Source: a virus. From it: a stretch of 24,283 bases of DNA. Position 1 is the stretch's first letter; the number at the start of each line of letters is the position of its first letter. Position numbers and translations under genes: made by a program. Positions 11,480-24,283 of the stretch are shown here, piece after piece. The notes under the pieces were generated by a model. That model worked only from the letters and a program-made list of their open reading frames with translations. It did not search any database and was not told the origin of the DNA. Where the stretch lies: positions 1 to 24,283 of IMG/VR virus record IMGVR_UViG_3300030117_000650; one strand, written 5' to 3'.

Positions 11480-11805
11480 CACTTTACTCCTTTGAATGAG
11501 CCGCCACGCTTAGACATAACAGCGCCACCGTTCTTGTACTTCTTCGCGGCTTGCGGGTTCATCTTCACCTGAACTTCTTCAGGCAGCTTGGAGAAACCCT
11601 TGTATTCAGGTGGAACAGCGCCGCCGTCTTTAAATCGAGGCGCGATTCTCTCTTTTCCACCACGTTTAATTGGTTTTCCACCCCTTAGAGCTTTTGCAAA
11701 TTCTATTTTTAGAATAGTCGGTAAATTTCTTAAAGGATCCGCAGCAACCATAGTGTCAACAATGTTACTACCGCTTCCTTGTCCAAAACCTTTTCTCTTA
11801 GCCAT
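11479..11805 (-). CDS. Basic 108-aa protein between TerL and portal, unknown function
   Basis: The product starts MAKRKGFGQGSGSNIVDTMV, has PTILKIEFAKALRGGKPIKR in the middle, then APRFKDGGAVPPEYKGFSKL and PEEVQVKMNPQAAKKYKNGG, ending AVMSKRGGSFKGVK. The DGGAV and NGGAV elements and the RGGSFKGV end match the tail of the next gene. The start lies at the TerL stop as TGATG and an AGGAGT is placed ahead of it. No function is recognised; shared tails suggest that these proteins bind the same partner. Confidence 0.68.
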   Translation of the reverse strand: MAKRKGFGQGSGSNIVDTMVAADPLRNLPTILKIEFAKALRGGKPIKRGGKERIAPRFKDGGAVPPEYKGFSKLPEEVQVKMNPQAAKKYKNGGAVMSKRGGSFKGVK

Positions 11806-13289
11806 CAATAATACTCCTTACGCCTTCGGTATGCGTGAATATCCTCGTCCTCATAATCAGCACGAGTACGAATAAAACCGCCTTGTCTAAAACGAAGTAT
11901 AGCCTGTGTCATGCTATCGGCCAAGTCATCGTGTTCGCCGTTAGGAAACGACGCACATTCCTCAATGACCTCTTCTGCCCATCTAGACTCTGGCGACCAT
12001 ACCATGCCACTCTCAAAGACAGGCGCACAAGCATTCATACGAGAAAACTTGTCAGCGCCCCTGCCGGGGGTAAACGCACTCACAGGGATTCCCATCTGGC
12101 GCATCTCATGTGTGAGCGGCGTACCAGACGCCTTTTGCTCAATCAAAACCATATCAGGGTCGTAGTCCTTATAGAGCCTCAAAGCTGCATCTTTTAGCTC
12201 TGGGAACTCCCATCGTCCTTTTTCCGCATCCAAGAGAATGATCGCAGGCTCTTCACCCTCGTCCGGATAAAAGATTCCCCACGTTGTAATAGCGCTATAG
12301 TCTGCTCTTTCGCTTTTTGTAAACGCCGTGTCATAGCTCTGAATAATGTATTCACACGGCGGCGGATCATCAGCTTCCCAAACATTCCACCACTCCCTTT
12401 TAATGATTGCACCTTCTTCGGCTGTCGGATTTTGGAGGTATTGTGCATTCCACTTACTAACAGGAATACTTGCCCTAACACCTTCTAGCTCGTCCCTGCT
12501 CCAAAATTCTGGCCACAACACGTTGTCTGTATCGGGGAAGATCGCCGGAAACTCCACAACCTCCCACTGGTCCGCTCCGCCCTCGGCCTGCTTCTGCAAT
12601 ACCTTCGCGGTCAAATCCCTGATCGACCACCTCGTCATCACGATGATGATTGACCCGCCCGGTTGTAGTCGCTGTCTCGGTCCTGATGTGTACCATTCGT
12701 AAATCCCATCCAACGCGGTGGGAGACAACGCATCCTGCTCTGATACAGGATCGTCAATGATACAAAGGTTGGCACCACGACCTGCCAGCGCACCGCCTAC
12801 ACCAACAGCGTAGTATTCGCCACCTTCATTCGTAGACCAGCGACCACTAGCTTTAGCGTCCCTAGCCAATTCGATCTCAGGAAAAACATCACGGTAAATC
12901 TCACTGTCGAGAAGGTTCTTCACCTTTCGACCAAAGCCAACTGCAAGCTCGGCAGTGTGCGTCGCCTGAATGATCTTGGTATGAGGATCACGCCCCATAA
13001 CCCACGCAGGAAACAAATAACTCGCAAATTCAGACTTCGTATGACGAGGCGGCATGTTCACGATGAGCCTTTTTAGCTCACCCTTGGCAACACGCTCTAA
13101 CTTCTCAGCAAAAATCTTGTGATGACTGCCGCCAATAAAACTTGGCCAAACATGGCGAACAAACTCCAGAAACTCACCCTGAAGCTTATCACGCTCATGT
13201 AATTCTTTGTATTTGTCCAGATGCTTACTAAGCTGTTCTAACTCAGCATCAGTAAGGTATTCTGTGTTTATGTTAAAGGCTTCGTCCAC
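11805..13289 (-). CDS. terL: Terminase large subunit (ATPase-nuclease packaging motor)
   Basis: The 494-aa product has the full set of motifs. A Walker A-like loop MPPRHTKSEF lies at about 79-88, Walker B CIIDDP at 176-181 and the coupling motif VMTRW at 217-221. The nuclease domain has SYDTAF at 318-323 with its first Asp, VLIEQKASGTPL at 381-392, and the last acidic cluster EHDDLADSM at 452-460. It cuts concatemeric DNA and drives it through the portal. The start is a GTG at 13289, four bases after the upstream stop, with only a weak ribosome site; the next in-frame Met (79) would remove the N-terminus. The small subunit is not adjacent but about 7 kb upstream. Confidence 0.93.
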   Translation of the reverse strand: MDEAFNINTEYLTDAELEQLSKHLDKYKELHERDKLQGEFLEFVRHVWPSFIGGSHHKIFAEKLERVAKGELKRLIVNMPPRHTKSEFASYLFPAWVMGRDPHTKIIQATHTAELAVGFGRKVKNLLDSEIYRDVFPEIELARDAKASGRWSTNEGGEYYAVGVGGALAGRGANLCIIDDPVSEQDALSPTALDGIYEWYTSGPRQRLQPGGSIIIVMTRWSIRDLTAKVLQKQAEGGADQWEVVEFPAIFPDTDNVLWPEFWSRDELEGVRASIPVSKWNAQYLQNPTAEEGAIIKREWWNVWEADDPPPCEYIIQSYDTAFTKSERADYSAITTWGIFYPDEGEEPAIILLDAEKGRWEFPELKDAALRLYKDYDPDMVLIEQKASGTPLTHEMRQMGIPVSAFTPGRGADKFSRMNACAPVFESGMVWSPESRWAEEVIEECASFPNGEHDDLADSMTQAILRFRQGGFIRTRADYEDEDIHAYRRRKEYY

Positions 13290-20141: not shown

Positions 20142-20273
20142 GAACAATTGTACGGGTGCGGGAGACCCCCGGTGGAGGATCCGGGGGCCGCCTTTTAACC
20201 GAACAATTGTTCGGGCCTTCAGGGAGATCCTGATCCATGCGTAAGACCCCGGCCCGATCCCGAACAATTGTAC
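20142..20273. repeat. Three GAACAATTG elements about 60 bases apart
   Basis: Copies at 20142 (GAACAATTGTAC), 20201 (perfect) and 20262 (GAACAATTGTAC) are spaced 59 and 61 bases apart. This is part of a 500-base stretch (20017-20516) with no gene I can support. A GC-rich inverted repeat (CCCCCGG 20166-20172, CCGGGGG 20181-20187) lies between the first two. Confidence 0.8.
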
Positions 20274-20292
20274 GAGTTTGGCCCGGCCCCCG

Positions 20293-20329
20293 AAAAGGCC
20301 CGGCCACTGATCGCACCCAATGGCCGGGC
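20293..20329 (-). terminator. Possible terminator downstream of the small terminase gene
   Basis: GCCCGGCC (20298-20305) and GGCCGGGC (20322-20329) form an 8-bp stem with a 16-base loop, and the minus strand continues CTTTTC. The stem word GGCCCGGCC is also repeated directly at 20280. Confidence 0.5.
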
Positions 20330-20359
20330 GAGTCGAGGGAGGAATGGACAATGATAGCC

Positions 20360-20444
20360 CCGATGACAGCCCCGATGTCAACCCGATCCCGATCAATCCC
20401 GATCCCGATGACCCCGATGCGGCCCCGATCCCGAACAATTCTTC
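20360..20444. repeat. CCGAT cluster ending in a GAACAATTCTTC element
   Basis: Nine CCGAT or CCGAA words between 20360 and 20435, spaced 6 to 12 bases apart, run straight into a GAACAATTCTTC at 20433. The arrangement copies that at 18173-18213. Confidence 0.65.
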
Positions 20445-20516
20445 GGAAACCCGATGATCTCCGCCTCCTCCCCCCGCATGGTGTGGACAGTGGGATTTAG
20501 TGGGACTTACGCTATC

Positions 20517-21032
20517 TCACACTATATCTTGTGGGTCATGTTCAATAACTTCTGTATCTGGTGTGACATTCACCATCCGAGACTCAGCTAAACGGCGGAA
20601 CTCCTCCAGTTTTTGACTGATTTCCTCCTTAGTCGCTGCCGTCACATCCTGCTTCACAACATGCTGCTTGTTGATAAGTAGCCCTGCTGCCTTCAAGCGT
20701 AACTCTTCAGCCCTGATTGCTTCGCTCAGTTTACCGGCCTGCCATGCCTCATCCCTGATCTTTTTCAGATCGCGGATAGACTTGTCCACAGTGACGCCGA
20801 ACTTGCTTTGCGCCTCCAGCCTCATCTCTTGCAGGCGCTCCTGCACGACGCTGTTCTGTAGCAAGCGCACAGCGGATACAGATGGGTTCTTGTACCCAGC
20901 CTCTCGCGCTGCTGCTGTTTGTGTCATGTCTTTGTGCAGGTAATTGTTCAGGAACTCCTGCTGCATAGGCTTCAGACGTTTCAGTCCAGCCAGTGATGCT
21001 TCTTTGGATAGGTTCTCGCCAACCTTCGGCAT
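20517..21032 (-). CDS. terS: Terminase small subunit
   Basis: The 171-aa product has a helical N-terminal region with LKPMQQEFLNNYLHKDMTQT and AAAREAGYKNPSVSAVRLLQ (about residues 21-60), the HTH arrangement of the Terminase_2-type small subunits (QQ.F...Y......T.AA..AGY). VVQERLQEMRLEAQSKFGVT and a coiled coil for ring assembly follow. It recognises the packaging site and hands DNA to TerL. ATG 21032 has AGGAGC, which overlaps the stop of the preceding 56-aa gene. It is unusual that seven accessory kilobases separate it from TerL. A partial AATTGTTC element lies inside it at 20942. Confidence 0.85.
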   Translation of the reverse strand: MPKVGENLSKEASLAGLKRLKPMQQEFLNNYLHKDMTQTAAAREAGYKNPSVSAVRLLQNSVVQERLQEMRLEAQSKFGVTVDKSIRDLKKIRDEAWQAGKLSEAIRAEELRLKAAGLLINKQHVVKQDVTAATKEEISQKLEEFRRLAESRMVNVTPDTEVIEHDPQDIV

Positions 21033-22547: not shown

Positions 22548-23045
22548 TTATGCTGCGTCTTCTTCTTTCTCATCGCGCAGGATCATTGCCATCTCTTCGA
22601 TTGGCGTCATGTCCAGCCCAATGTGTTCAGCGGCACCACGGTAGCGGTTGAGCCACGCTGCAAGCTGCACACCAGCCTGACGCCGCAACTCTGCCTGTGA
22701 CTCTTCGCTCTCAGGATCGAATGGCTCGTAGCCACCGCCCTGACGCCGTGTCGTCACTGGCGAGATGTACGCCGGATATTCAGTCACCTTAATGTGACGA
22801 ACATCGCTTTCGATCACCTCAGTCTTAGCCACAATCCGCAGTCCAGATGCGAACCGCCGTGCCAAGTCCAACTTGGCTTCATTCAGCAACTCGTCATCAC
22901 GCCCATGGAAAGCATGATAGGCTTCGTGATCAGGATGATCAGCCAACCAATCAATGAATTCCTGCGGAACAAACATGTTCTTGCCTGTCTGCTGCAAGTA
23001 ATCATCAATGATCCGCTGCTTCGTCTTCTTCGAAAAATAAGCCAT
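22548..23045 (-). CDS. 165-aa phage protein of unknown function
   Basis: The product starts MAYFSKKTKQRIIDDYLQQT, then GKNMFVPQEFIDWLADHPDH, and has EAYHAFHGRDDELLNEAKLD in the first half. A segment with KVTEYPAYISPVTTRRQGGG and an acidic helical C-terminus follow. It has no membrane segment. ATG 23045 follows GGAGG by five bases; longer in-frame starts run into the repeat array and are rejected. The first half looks like a small helical, possibly DNA-binding domain, and DUF-type relatives in Rhodobacterales and their phages are plausible; I cannot name them. A GAACAATTTTAC element lies 22 bases upstream of the start. Confidence 0.72.
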   Translation of the reverse strand: MAYFSKKTKQRIIDDYLQQTGKNMFVPQEFIDWLADHPDHEAYHAFHGRDDELLNEAKLDLARRFASGLRIVAKTEVIESDVRHIKVTEYPAYISPVTTRRQGGGYEPFDPESEESQAELRRQAGVQLAAWLNRYRGAAEHIGLDMTPIEEMAMILRDEKEEDAA

Positions 23046-23078: not shown

Positions 23079-23085
23079 TGGTTTG

Positions 23086-23755
23086 TCATGCCATGCCCCG
23101 CCAGAACTCATCAAACCGAGCAAACCGTGACCGCCATGCCAATCCCAACCCAATCGGGACTTGTCCCACGCTGCCCCGCCTTGCCAAGACCGCCTTGCCT
23201 CGCCGAGCCACACCGCGCCGAAACTTGTAGCGCCGTTCCTAACCACGACCGCCTTGCCTAGAGACGCCTAACCCTACCAGACCTGAACATACCGAGACCG
23301 CCAAGCCCGACCACGCCCGACCCTAACTAGACGCGACCGCCAAATCTCGCCGAACCCCGCCGAACCTAAACCGCCAAATCCAGCCAATCCTCGCCACGCC
23401 CCTCCATGTGATACCTATCCTCACCTTGACTTGACCGCCATGCCCTGCCTAGCCTCGCCGTGCTCTACCTGAACCGCCTTGCCACTCCAAAGCCCCAACA
23501 TATCAGGCCGTACCTAGACCGCCCCGCCGTAACTGGCCCCGCCGTAACAAACCCGAACTTAGGTTGACAGACCACAACCGCCTGATCTCGCCACACCGCA
23601 TCTCACCCCGCCTAACCGTAACAAACCGTACCTAAACCGCCTTGACCAACCTGACCGCGACTAACCGTGCCGTGCCGGACCGAACCCCGCCTTTCCTAAA
23701 CAGAACCGCCAAACCCGACCTCGACATAACAGACAAAGCCATAACTAACCGCGAC
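23086..23755. repeat. Degenerate pentanucleotide array CCNNR with ACCG phase breaks
   Basis: The plus strand can be divided into pentamers mostly of the form CC followed by two free bases and a purine, for example CCTTG, CCAAG, CCGAG, CCACG, CCTAA. About a dozen 4-base ACCG units (starting near 23130, 23189, 23248, 23297, 23336, 23370, 23434, 23473, 23518, 23577, 23636, 23705) each shift the phase by one base. Distances between them are 59, 59, 49, 39, 34, 64, 39, 45, 59, 59 and 69 bases, all but one of the form 5n+4. No long reading frame, hairpin series or CRISPR-like spacer exists. It fills most of an 860-base region (23046-23908) without a long gene. On the minus strand the pentamers read YNNGG, giving regularly spaced GG pairs. 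Confidence 0.8.
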
Positions 23756-23776
23756 CACTAAATTTATTCTCCTCAT
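23696..23776 (-). CDS. Possible 26-aa leader-like ORF running into the array
   Basis: ATG 23776 has a strong AGGAGG nine bases upstream, but the frame, MRRINLVVAVSYGFVCYVEV then GFGGSV, ends after 26 residues within the pentamer array. It may be a leader peptide, a remnant start of a lost gene, or a way of bringing ribosomes onto the array. A second 26-codon ORF in another frame (23745-23825) overlaps it but has only a poor ribosome site. Confidence 0.35.
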   Translation of the reverse strand: MRRINLVVAVSYGFVCYVEVGFGGSV

Positions 23777-23801
23777 TGTTTGTTTCCTCCTTTTGAAAAA
23801 C

Positions 23802-23901
23802 AGGAGGGGCAACACCCAACAACATCCCGACCAACCACAGGAAAATGCTGCCCCTCCTTCTGTGAGGGGCGGCGAAGAAAAAGGACAAAACCCGCCGCCC
23901 C
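23802..23901 (-). promoter_or_regulatory. Competing hairpins with terminator-like end, attenuator-like
   Basis: Arms 23802-23811 (AGGAGGGGCA) and 23849-23858 (TGCCCCTCCT) pair over 10 bases and are followed on the minus strand by GTTTTT. GCCCCTC (23850-23856) can instead pair with GAGGGGC (23864-23870). A further stem uses GGGGCGGCG (23866-23874) and CGCCGCCCC (23893-23901). The shared arms make these exclusive. They lie between the stop of the right-edge gene and the ribosome site of the leader-like ORF. Confidence 0.55.
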
Positions 23902-23908
23902 TATCTTG

Positions 23909-24283
23909 TTATGCTGCCCGACGCAGACGCTCTTCCTGCAAGAACTGCATCAACTCAGCAGTCTGGCTATCAGCGCACTCCGGCTGCTCCATGGCAAGCT
24001 GCTGGATATCACGCGCTTCATGCGTGATGTTGTCCCACAACTCCTGATATTCGCCCATGTCTTCAGAACTAGCGACAGCGAAAGTGCCATACGAACCGCG
24101 ACCTTTCTCCTGACGGAAGTCACCGATCCCGACCATCTGCCCTGCATTATTCAGCAGCGACATGATGGAATAAGCACTGAACGTTGGCGTTACAAAGCGG
24201 ATGTCTACTTCCGCAACCCACTCAGGAAGAAACGCACGAGTACGCACATCTGGTGTCTTATTCATGTCAGCCGAGCGCACGAT
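23909..24283 (-). CDS. Conserved phage protein with VGIGDFRQEKG motif, 5' end outside the window
   Basis: The frame is open to the window edge. The visible 120 or so residues have DVRTRAFLPEWVAEVDIRFV, SIMSLLNNAGQMVGIGDFRQ and EKGRGSYGTFAVA, followed by an acidic helical end. This block (R.RP.F..W.....V, then AG...GIGD.R...G.YG.F) is the C-terminal half of a phage protein family I know as longer, about 200-250 aa, of unknown function. An internal ATG at 24265 has no ribosome site, so the gene most likely starts outside. The family's usual neighbours are replication and recombination genes. Confidence 0.7.
   Translation of the reverse strand: MVRSADMNKTPDVRTRAFLPEWVAEVDIRFVTPTFSAYSIMSLLNNAGQMVGIGDFRQEKGRGSYGTFAVASSEDMGEYQELWDNITHEARDIQQLAMEQPECADSQTAELMQFLQEERLRRAA

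What the first reader, a model, noticed from the sequence alone, without database searches (positions are those of the whole stretch)
23086..23755. A 670-bp non-coding array of degenerate 5-bp units with 4-bp phase-reset units
The sequence obeys a strict 5-base register (CCNNR) for hundreds of bases while the inner bases vary freely. The only register breaks are ACCG tetramers 34-69 bases apart, and ten of eleven distances equal 5n+4. Ordinary microsatellites keep the sequence, not just the register; here the register is kept and the content lost. Two pentamers equal about one helix turn, so a protein that contacts CC every half turn, or a two-tetrad G-quadruplex-forming strand (GG every five bases on the minus strand), could explain it. 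I know of no described element like this.
Basis: seen in the sequence. Interest (0 to 1): 0.85.

Follow-up and report, generated by a model that had tools for sequence, protein, structure and literature searches.

The report
VIPR guide-RNA array in marine phage
The strange five-base array is a string of about twelve guide RNAs of VIPR, a recently reported CRISPR-like system carried by viruses, and two of these guides spell out conserved stretches of genes of T7-like viruses, so this marine phage probably uses them to switch off rival phages.

Summary
Read on the minus strand, window 23082-23756 is GGYNN repeated in strict 5-base register, cut into 12 complete segments by a 4-base step (GGC|GGTY). 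It is the guide (vrRNA) array of a VIPR system, a class described in a 2026 preprint (PMC13142463). That preprint reports guides of alternating GGY/NN, in which only the NN pairs read the DNA target, with one skipped base per pair.
Evidence: the array lies between a gene homologous to SUSP1 Vipr (X; RAMP-like fold) and a second conserved gene (Y). Most relatives keep this layout with different NN content. NN pairs stay fixed in orthologous guides while the GGY frame drifts. Decoding by the 1-nt skip rule works. Guide g2 hit 55 viral contigs, nearly all in T7-type endonuclease I; the same bases with skip 2 hit none. Guide g4 matches the T7-type primase-helicase on the same contigs. Among 165 independent guides, 16 match those contigs with at most 1 mismatch under skip 1, and none under skip 0, 2, 3 or shuffling.
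So it is a new member of a very recently described kind. It has no hairpin tails. Transcription, binding and silencing are inferred.

The parts
23909..24283 (-). Gene X, Vipr homologue (last 124 codons; the N-terminus lies beyond the window end; about 253 aa in relatives). RAMP-like guide-RNA-binding protein
   Evidence: hhalign of the family against SUSP1 Vipr: 51 columns including the G-rich loop, E 1.2e-6; PDB sequence hit 36pp 'SUSP1 Vipr protein' E 9e-4; Foldseek top 50 all CRISPR Cas7-type or other RAMP proteins
23757..23908 (-). Spacer between X and the array with two terminator-like hairpins on the minus strand
   Evidence: 2 found, 1.4 expected by chance; sequence read directly
23082..23756 (-). 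vrRNA (guide) array: GGYNN units in segments GGTYNN(GGYNN)nGGC that abut directly
23708..23756 (-). guide g1: GC TA AT TT CT AT GA CG TT; candidate target the HsdM motif AYIYLIERF (weak)
   Evidence: 3 of 8 hits in HsdM-like frames at 17 specified bases
23639..23707 (-). guide g2: CT TA AA GG TC CC AC AC TA GC CA TG AA; target T7-type endonuclease I, peptide LYKGSPTTYAQW
   Evidence: 55 viral contigs; 24/24 bases of the first 12 NN in L216, L218, L223; Pfam Phage_endo_I E 1e-52 to 1e-54
23580..23638 (-). guide g3: TA AC TT AC TA GG GA GC GT GA CA; no target found
23521..23579 (-). guide g4: GT CT AA AA CG TT AC GG CA AC GG; target T7-type primase-helicase, peptide VLKNRFTGQTG
   Evidence: 21/22 bases on L216 and L218, the one mismatch being a synonymous Leu codon; shuffled maximum 16/20; Pfam Helic-prim_T7_N and DnaB_C
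23476..23520 (-). segment g5, the one whose length (45) breaks the 5n+4 rule
23437..23475 (-). guide g6: CA AG AC GA TA AG AT (too short to decode)
23373..23436 (-). guide g7: AA AA GA TA AT AT GG GT GA TT TG TT (target unknown)
23339..23372 (-). guide g8: TA TC GG TC GA TT (too short to decode)
23300..23338 (-). guide g9: GC TA AG CG GT CG TT (too short to decode)
23251..23299 (-). guide g10: TC AT CA CT AG TA GT TA AA; a near-identical guide recurs in many relatives (target unknown)
23192..23250 (-). guide g11: GT TA AC GC AA TC GC GT TC GA AA (target unknown)
23133..23191 (-). guide g12: TT AA GG AG GG AA CC TG TG TT AT (target unknown)
23082..23132 (-). 3' end of the array, irregular last segment
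22548..23045 (-). Gene Y (165 aa), next to the array in relatives; candidate VIPR accessory protein (vap) of unknown fold
   Evidence: found in 80 fetched loci and beside the array in genome contigs; no confident Pfam, PHROG or PDB-fold match; no similarity to SUSP1 vap1

Best explanation
The array is the guide-RNA locus of a phage-encoded VIPR system. It is probably transcribed on the minus strand together with, or downstream of, vipr (gene X). Vipr (RAMP) subunits would bind the RNA one per five bases, using the conserved GGY as the protein footprint, and present each NN pair. Consecutive NN pairs base-pair with double-stranded DNA that has one unread base between them (NNxNNx). That unread base falls on codon wobble positions, so a guide tolerates synonymous changes. 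The 4-base step GGC|GGTY marks where one guide ends and the next begins. The phage aims the guides at conserved genes of competitors: here T7-like phages (endonuclease I, primase-helicase), and in relatives also DNA polymerase, ribonucleotide reductase and tyrosine integrases. By analogy with the tested SUSP1 system, binding would repress transcription of the target. Shown here: array anatomy, Vipr homology, conservation of the NN pairs, the 1-nt skip code and the targets. Inferred: transcription, processing at GGC|GGTY, RNA-protein complex, silencing, benefit to the phage.
For: Register and boundary are real. Same layout (X, GG-register array on the sense strand, Y) in most of 80 relatives with different NN content. 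X matches SUSP1 Vipr and its model hits Cas7-type and other RAMP proteins only in the top 50. The unit equals the published vrRNA consensus. NN fixed while GGY drifts. g2 by 1-nt skip: 55 viral contigs, nearly all endonuclease I; same bases with skip 2: none. A relative's guide: 10 contigs, all integrase LRFHDLRHEAI or LRFHDFRHEAI. 165 independent guides against the endonuclease contigs: 16 with at most 1 mismatch under skip 1, none under skip 0, 2, 3 or shuffled order; 23 of the 25 best in wobble phase. g4 matches the primase-helicase on the same contigs. Matches do not run past the boundary (21-27%, chance 25%).
Against: No RNA data. No sigma-70-like promoter near the array. No 3' hairpin tail as in the characterised type II vrRNAs. 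The X model is weak (mean pLDDT 57.6) and X is truncated in the window. Y shows no similarity to SUSP1 vap1. Targets were found for two guides firmly and one weakly; g3, g11 and g12 gave no convincing target.
Confidence: 0.95

Rival explanations
1. The array is a DNA or RNA landing platform for a multimeric protein that reads only the GG register (for example a packaging or partition site on DNA, or a TRAP-like ring on RNA); the NN bases carry no information.
For: Strict 5-base register. The packaging genes lie downstream (TerS 20517-21032 and TerL 11805-13289). TRAP binds RNA triplets at about 5-nt spacing (own knowledge).
Against: NN pairs are the most conserved positions in orthologous guides and spell out conserved phage proteins in the right codon phase. 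Segments have 6 to 13 units, not a fixed ring size.
Confidence: 0.02
2. A G-quadruplex-forming strand (two-tetrad, GG every five bases) acts structurally.
For: GG every five bases on the minus strand.
Against: In relatives the second G of the unit is T, A or C in 29% of units. The RNA folds no better than shuffles (z -0.7; this program does not model G-quadruplexes). It does not explain 5n+4 boundaries, conserved NN or targets.
Confidence: 0.01
3. A decayed microsatellite or a degraded VIPR array without present function in this phage.
For: Some units are off-consensus, segment g5 breaks the rule, and several guides have no target found.
Against: Register intact over about 675 bases. g2 has a perfect 24-base match and g4 a 21-of-22 match in present-day contigs. 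Guides turn over quickly between relatives, whose arrays share at most two guides with the window, as expected of an active system.
Confidence: 0.02

Closest known systems
VIPR type II system of Escherichia phage SUSP1 (PMC13142463; PDB 36pp)
   Same: Phage-borne; Vipr RAMP homologue; GGY/NN tandem repeats next to vipr; 1-nt skip decoding with the skip at codon wobble positions; targets in competing mobile elements.
   Different: SUSP1 vrRNAs are separate RNAs of about 100 nt with a structured 3' tail. Here about 12 guides abut in one 675-base array without hairpin tails, separated by GGC|GGTY. Vipr is about 253 aa instead of 195. The neighbour Y shows no similarity to SUSP1 vap1. Decoded targets are conserved genes of T7-like phages and integrases, where the preprint names a satellite and resident prophages.
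VIPR 'staggered arrays with overlapping vrRNAs' (PMC13142463, fig. S18)
   Same: Possibly the same architecture: many guides packed in one tract.
   Different: Cannot be judged: the figure, sequences and type assignments are not in the text held here.
Class 1 CRISPR-Cas (Cas7/Csm3 effectors)
   Same: RAMP protein fold; arrays of guides against viruses; some target bases left unread.
   Different: No identical repeats separating spacers and no cas genes seen; unread GGY triplet every 5 RNA bases; carried by the phage.

Membership tests
VIPR | RAMP-fold Vipr protein encoded at the locus | tested here: met
   hhalign E 1.2e-6 with SUSP1 Vipr over the G-loop region; PDB 36pp E 9e-4; Foldseek top hits Csm3/Cas7. 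The model is low confidence.
VIPR | vrRNA of tandem YNNGG (GGY/NN) repeats, conserved GGY, hypervariable NN | tested here: met
   376 segments from relatives and window: G1 96%, G2 71%, Y 95%, NN mixed.
VIPR | 9-16 repeats per guide | tested here: met
   In relatives the common GGCGGT distances are 44-69 bases, that is 8-13 NN, with some up to 15 NN; the window has 6-13, so some window guides are shorter than the published range.
VIPR | Target recognition by the 1-nt skip rule, skip at codon wobble | tested here: met
   Sequence test only. Binding itself not tested.
VIPR | Targets are competing mobile genetic elements | tested here: met
   g2 and g4 in T7-like phage contigs; g2 target absent from 397 genomes of the family of Pararhodobacter marinus.
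VIPR | Accessory gene vap next to vipr | tested here: inconclusive
   Y is strictly linked but matches no family and not SUSP1 vap1; vap2-6 sequences not available here.
VIPR type II | Invariable structured 3' tail on each vrRNA | tested here: not met
   Segments abut as GGC|GGTY; array RNA z -0.7; no Rfam match in the array.
VIPR | vrRNA expressed and bound to Vipr; target repressed | not testable with these tools
   Needs RNA sequencing, pull-down and reporter assays.
CRISPR-Cas | Identical direct repeats separating contiguous spacers, with cas genes | tested here: not met
   TRF reports no array in the region; no CRISPR-like repeat-spacer layout; no cas gene among the window proteins examined.

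The most novel reading that the evidence does not exclude
A tail-less VIPR subtype of alphaproteobacterial (mainly Rhodobacteraceae-type) phages. Up to a dozen guides are packed in one tract and delimited by a frame-breaking 4-base punctuation (GGC|GGTY here, GGCA in distant relatives). Guides are aimed at catalytic or conserved motifs of T7-like phages and integrases, and possibly also at type I restriction-modification (HsdM, guide g1), which would make it a counter-defence tool as well.
Probability: 0.4. Interest if true: 0.82.

Novelty: new member of a known kind. Interest (0 to 1): 0.72.

Why it matters
VIPR has one preprint behind it. This locus independently confirms its odd 1-nt skip code from sequence alone, in a marine phage clade that the text of the preprint does not mention, and it names the rivals: T7-like phages and integrase carriers. 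It also suggests how guides are delimited without tails. Guides that spell conserved protein motifs in codon register, blind to synonymous change, open a readable record of who competes with whom among uncultured ocean phages.

Tried and rejected
BLASTN of the array and megablast of the window in INPHARED: no match. Decoding against the viral relatives themselves gave no excess at skip 1; the perfect hits at skip 3 are probably leftover array, which has that spacing itself. TRAP-like RNA ring, packaging or partition site, G-quadruplex and structured RNA were considered and dropped. Y as the RAMP was considered first and dropped when X matched SUSP1 Vipr. g3 exact scan of viral contigs: none; g3 and g11 with 3 mismatches in 26 T7-like records: none; g12: one 3-mismatch hit, not trusted. 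The HsdM target of g1 was not found in 397 genomes of the family of Pararhodobacter marinus, so it stays weak.

Full report
What is there. CC pairs at lag 5 number 56 against 25.2 +/- 4.5 in dinucleotide-preserving shuffles, with extra peaks at lags 34 and 39, and the signal stops at both edges. Read on the minus strand, the unit is GGYNN and the register is reset by a missing base at GGC|GGTY. The window holds 12 complete segments in 23133-23756 plus an irregular end to about 23082.

Where it sits. The window is a 24,283-base IMG/VR virus fragment. Its genes run mainly on the minus strand: portal, TerL, TerS and major head protein are recognisable. TerL is 56-62% identical to phages such as 023Pt_psg01, DSL-LC04 and Pelagibacter phages HTVC027P and HTVC023P. 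The array lies downstream of gene X (23909-24283, cut by the window end) and upstream of gene Y (22548-23045).

Relatives. Scans of viral contigs with X and Y gave 90 loci. Most loci with X have a GG lag-5 array directly after X on its sense strand; after removing identical copies, 60 distinct arrays remain, and of 487 GGCGGT-to-GGCGGT distances in them 380 are 4 mod 5. In 376 segments, position 1 is G in 96%, position 2 is G in 71% and T in 22%, position 3 is a pyrimidine in 95%, and positions 4 and 5 are mixed. Y homologues sit beside the array. In bacterial genome assemblies the same trio occurs in Pararhodobacter marinus, Methylobacterium pseudosasicola, Aureimonas ureilytica, a Nannocystis MAG and a MAG labelled Nealsonbacteria; a Rhodobacteraceae MAG contig has X and an array but ends there. 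This points to alphaproteobacterial hosts. The more distant of these loci use GGCA as the 4-base step.

Identification. A literature search returned PMC13142463, which reports VIPR: a Vipr protein (an ancestral CRISPR RAMP) with vrRNAs of 9-16 YNNGG units. The NN pairs read double-stranded DNA with one skipped base per pair, usually the codon wobble base, and the system represses competing phages. I located the SUSP1 vipr locus in KT454805; its GGTNN tracts and hairpin tails are visible there (the gene assignment is mine, from the layout the preprint describes). The X family aligns with SUSP1 Vipr over 51 columns including the NAG...G(I/V)GD(F/W)R glycine loop (hhalign E 1.2e-6). It also finds PDB 36pp 'SUSP1 Vipr protein' (E 9e-4) and Pfam RAMPs below threshold. 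An AlphaFold model of a full-length relative is weak (mean pLDDT 57.6), but its 50 best Foldseek matches are all subunits of CRISPR effector complexes or RAMP proteins (best E 4e-4). Y has no recognisable family or fold and shows no similarity to SUSP1 vap1.

The code. If NN carries the information, orthologous guides should keep NN and let GGY drift. Choosing pairs by identity of NN in one half and measuring in the other half, the differences are G1 10%, G2 24%, Y3 29%, N4 3%, N5 16%; unrelated units differ 11, 48, 49, 74 and 74%. Counted per family and position there are 53 and 66 changes at positions 2 and 3 against 15 and 35 at N4 and N5. The two N positions therefore carry the conserved message.

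The targets. A guide shared by L051, L068 and L070, decoded with one skipped base, hit 10 viral contigs at all 22 bases. Every hit lies in a tyrosine-recombinase frame LRFHDLRHEAI or LRFHDFRHEAI, with the skip at the wobble base (Pfam Phage_integrase in L173). Window guide g2, with the 19 bases it shares with L009, L010 and L027, hit 55 viral contigs. Nearly all lie in the motif DIRFVFSN..AKLYKGSPTTYA of phage endonuclease I. L216, L218 and L223 match all 24 bases of its first 12 NN. The same bases with two skipped positions hit nothing. A 17-base scan (g1) gave 8 hits of which about five look like noise, so the chance level for 19 bases is well below one (inference).

Independent test. I took 165 guides of at least 10 NN that do not resemble the selecting pattern and compared them with the 55 g2 contigs. 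Sixteen match with at most one mismatch under skip 1, and none under skip 0, 2 or 3 or with shuffled NN order. Some of the 165 are near-identical guides of related phages, so the 16 are not all independent events. Of the 25 best, 23 lie in the wobble phase. Hits include primase-helicase, DNA polymerase, ribonucleotide reductase and integrase (Pfam). Window guide g4 spells VLKNRFTGQTG and matches 21 of 22 bases of the T7-type primase-helicase on L216 and L218, the contigs that also hold perfect g2 sites; its one mismatch is a synonymous leucine codon. Matching stops at the boundary: the next guide matches at 21-27% where chance is 25%, and the last NN of a guide is matched less often (66%) than the first or middle ones (85-89%). 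So GGC|GGTY separates guides.

What is inferred. Transcription, processing, the complex with X, silencing and benefit to the phage rest on analogy with SUSP1. No promoter of the simple sigma-70 type is seen, the array RNA has no special fold and Rfam has no match inside the array. g1 may aim at HsdM (three of eight hits, motif AYIYLIERF or AYMYLIERF), but this pattern is absent from 397 genomes of the family of P. marinus, so I treat it as a lead only.

Novelty. By every testable sequence feature the locus belongs to VIPR. It lacks the structured tail of the characterised type II guides. [quoted passage not shown] S18), whose sequences I could not see, so this may be one of its seven types. 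I file it as a new member of a known kind, with a tail-less, punctuated subtype as the more novel reading.

Noticed in passing
L252 3300-4207 (Phage DSL-LC04, OR003939.1): A gene annotated 'helix-turn-helix transcriptional regulator' (WJZ48083.1) is an X/Vipr homologue and has a GGYNN tract just upstream, so a published phage probably carries an unannotated VIPR locus.
   Followed up: partly
L253 2593-3480 (Gordonia phage Ecliptus, gene 19): A gene annotated as hypothetical protein is an X homologue followed directly by a dense GGYNN tract: VIPR in an actinobacterial phage.
   Followed up: partly
L090 999-2391: Two GGYNN arrays flank gene Y in this relative, one before and one after it.
   Followed up: partly
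window 23731-23800 (-): A strong Shine-Dalgarno-like AGGAGG followed by ATG lies just before the first guide; the short frame would read into g1 and g2. Possibly a remnant or a leader.
   Followed up: no
window 20226-20447: A second, weaker stretch with CC at lag 5 and a short 16-base tandem repeat (TCAACCCGATCCCGA), possibly inside a gene; not checked.
   Followed up: no
L071 array: Two guides read on the opposite strand as [DE]ATVHGFRSAF[KN] (integrase) and LRCRLHGGLSTGPRT (an HGGxSTGP motif that I associate from memory with a phage protein), suggesting temperate phages as targets; not confirmed by a collection scan.
   Followed up: partly
orthologous guides in relatives: The second base of NN varies about five times more often than the first (16% against 3%); this may reflect weaker pairing at that position.
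   Followed up: partly
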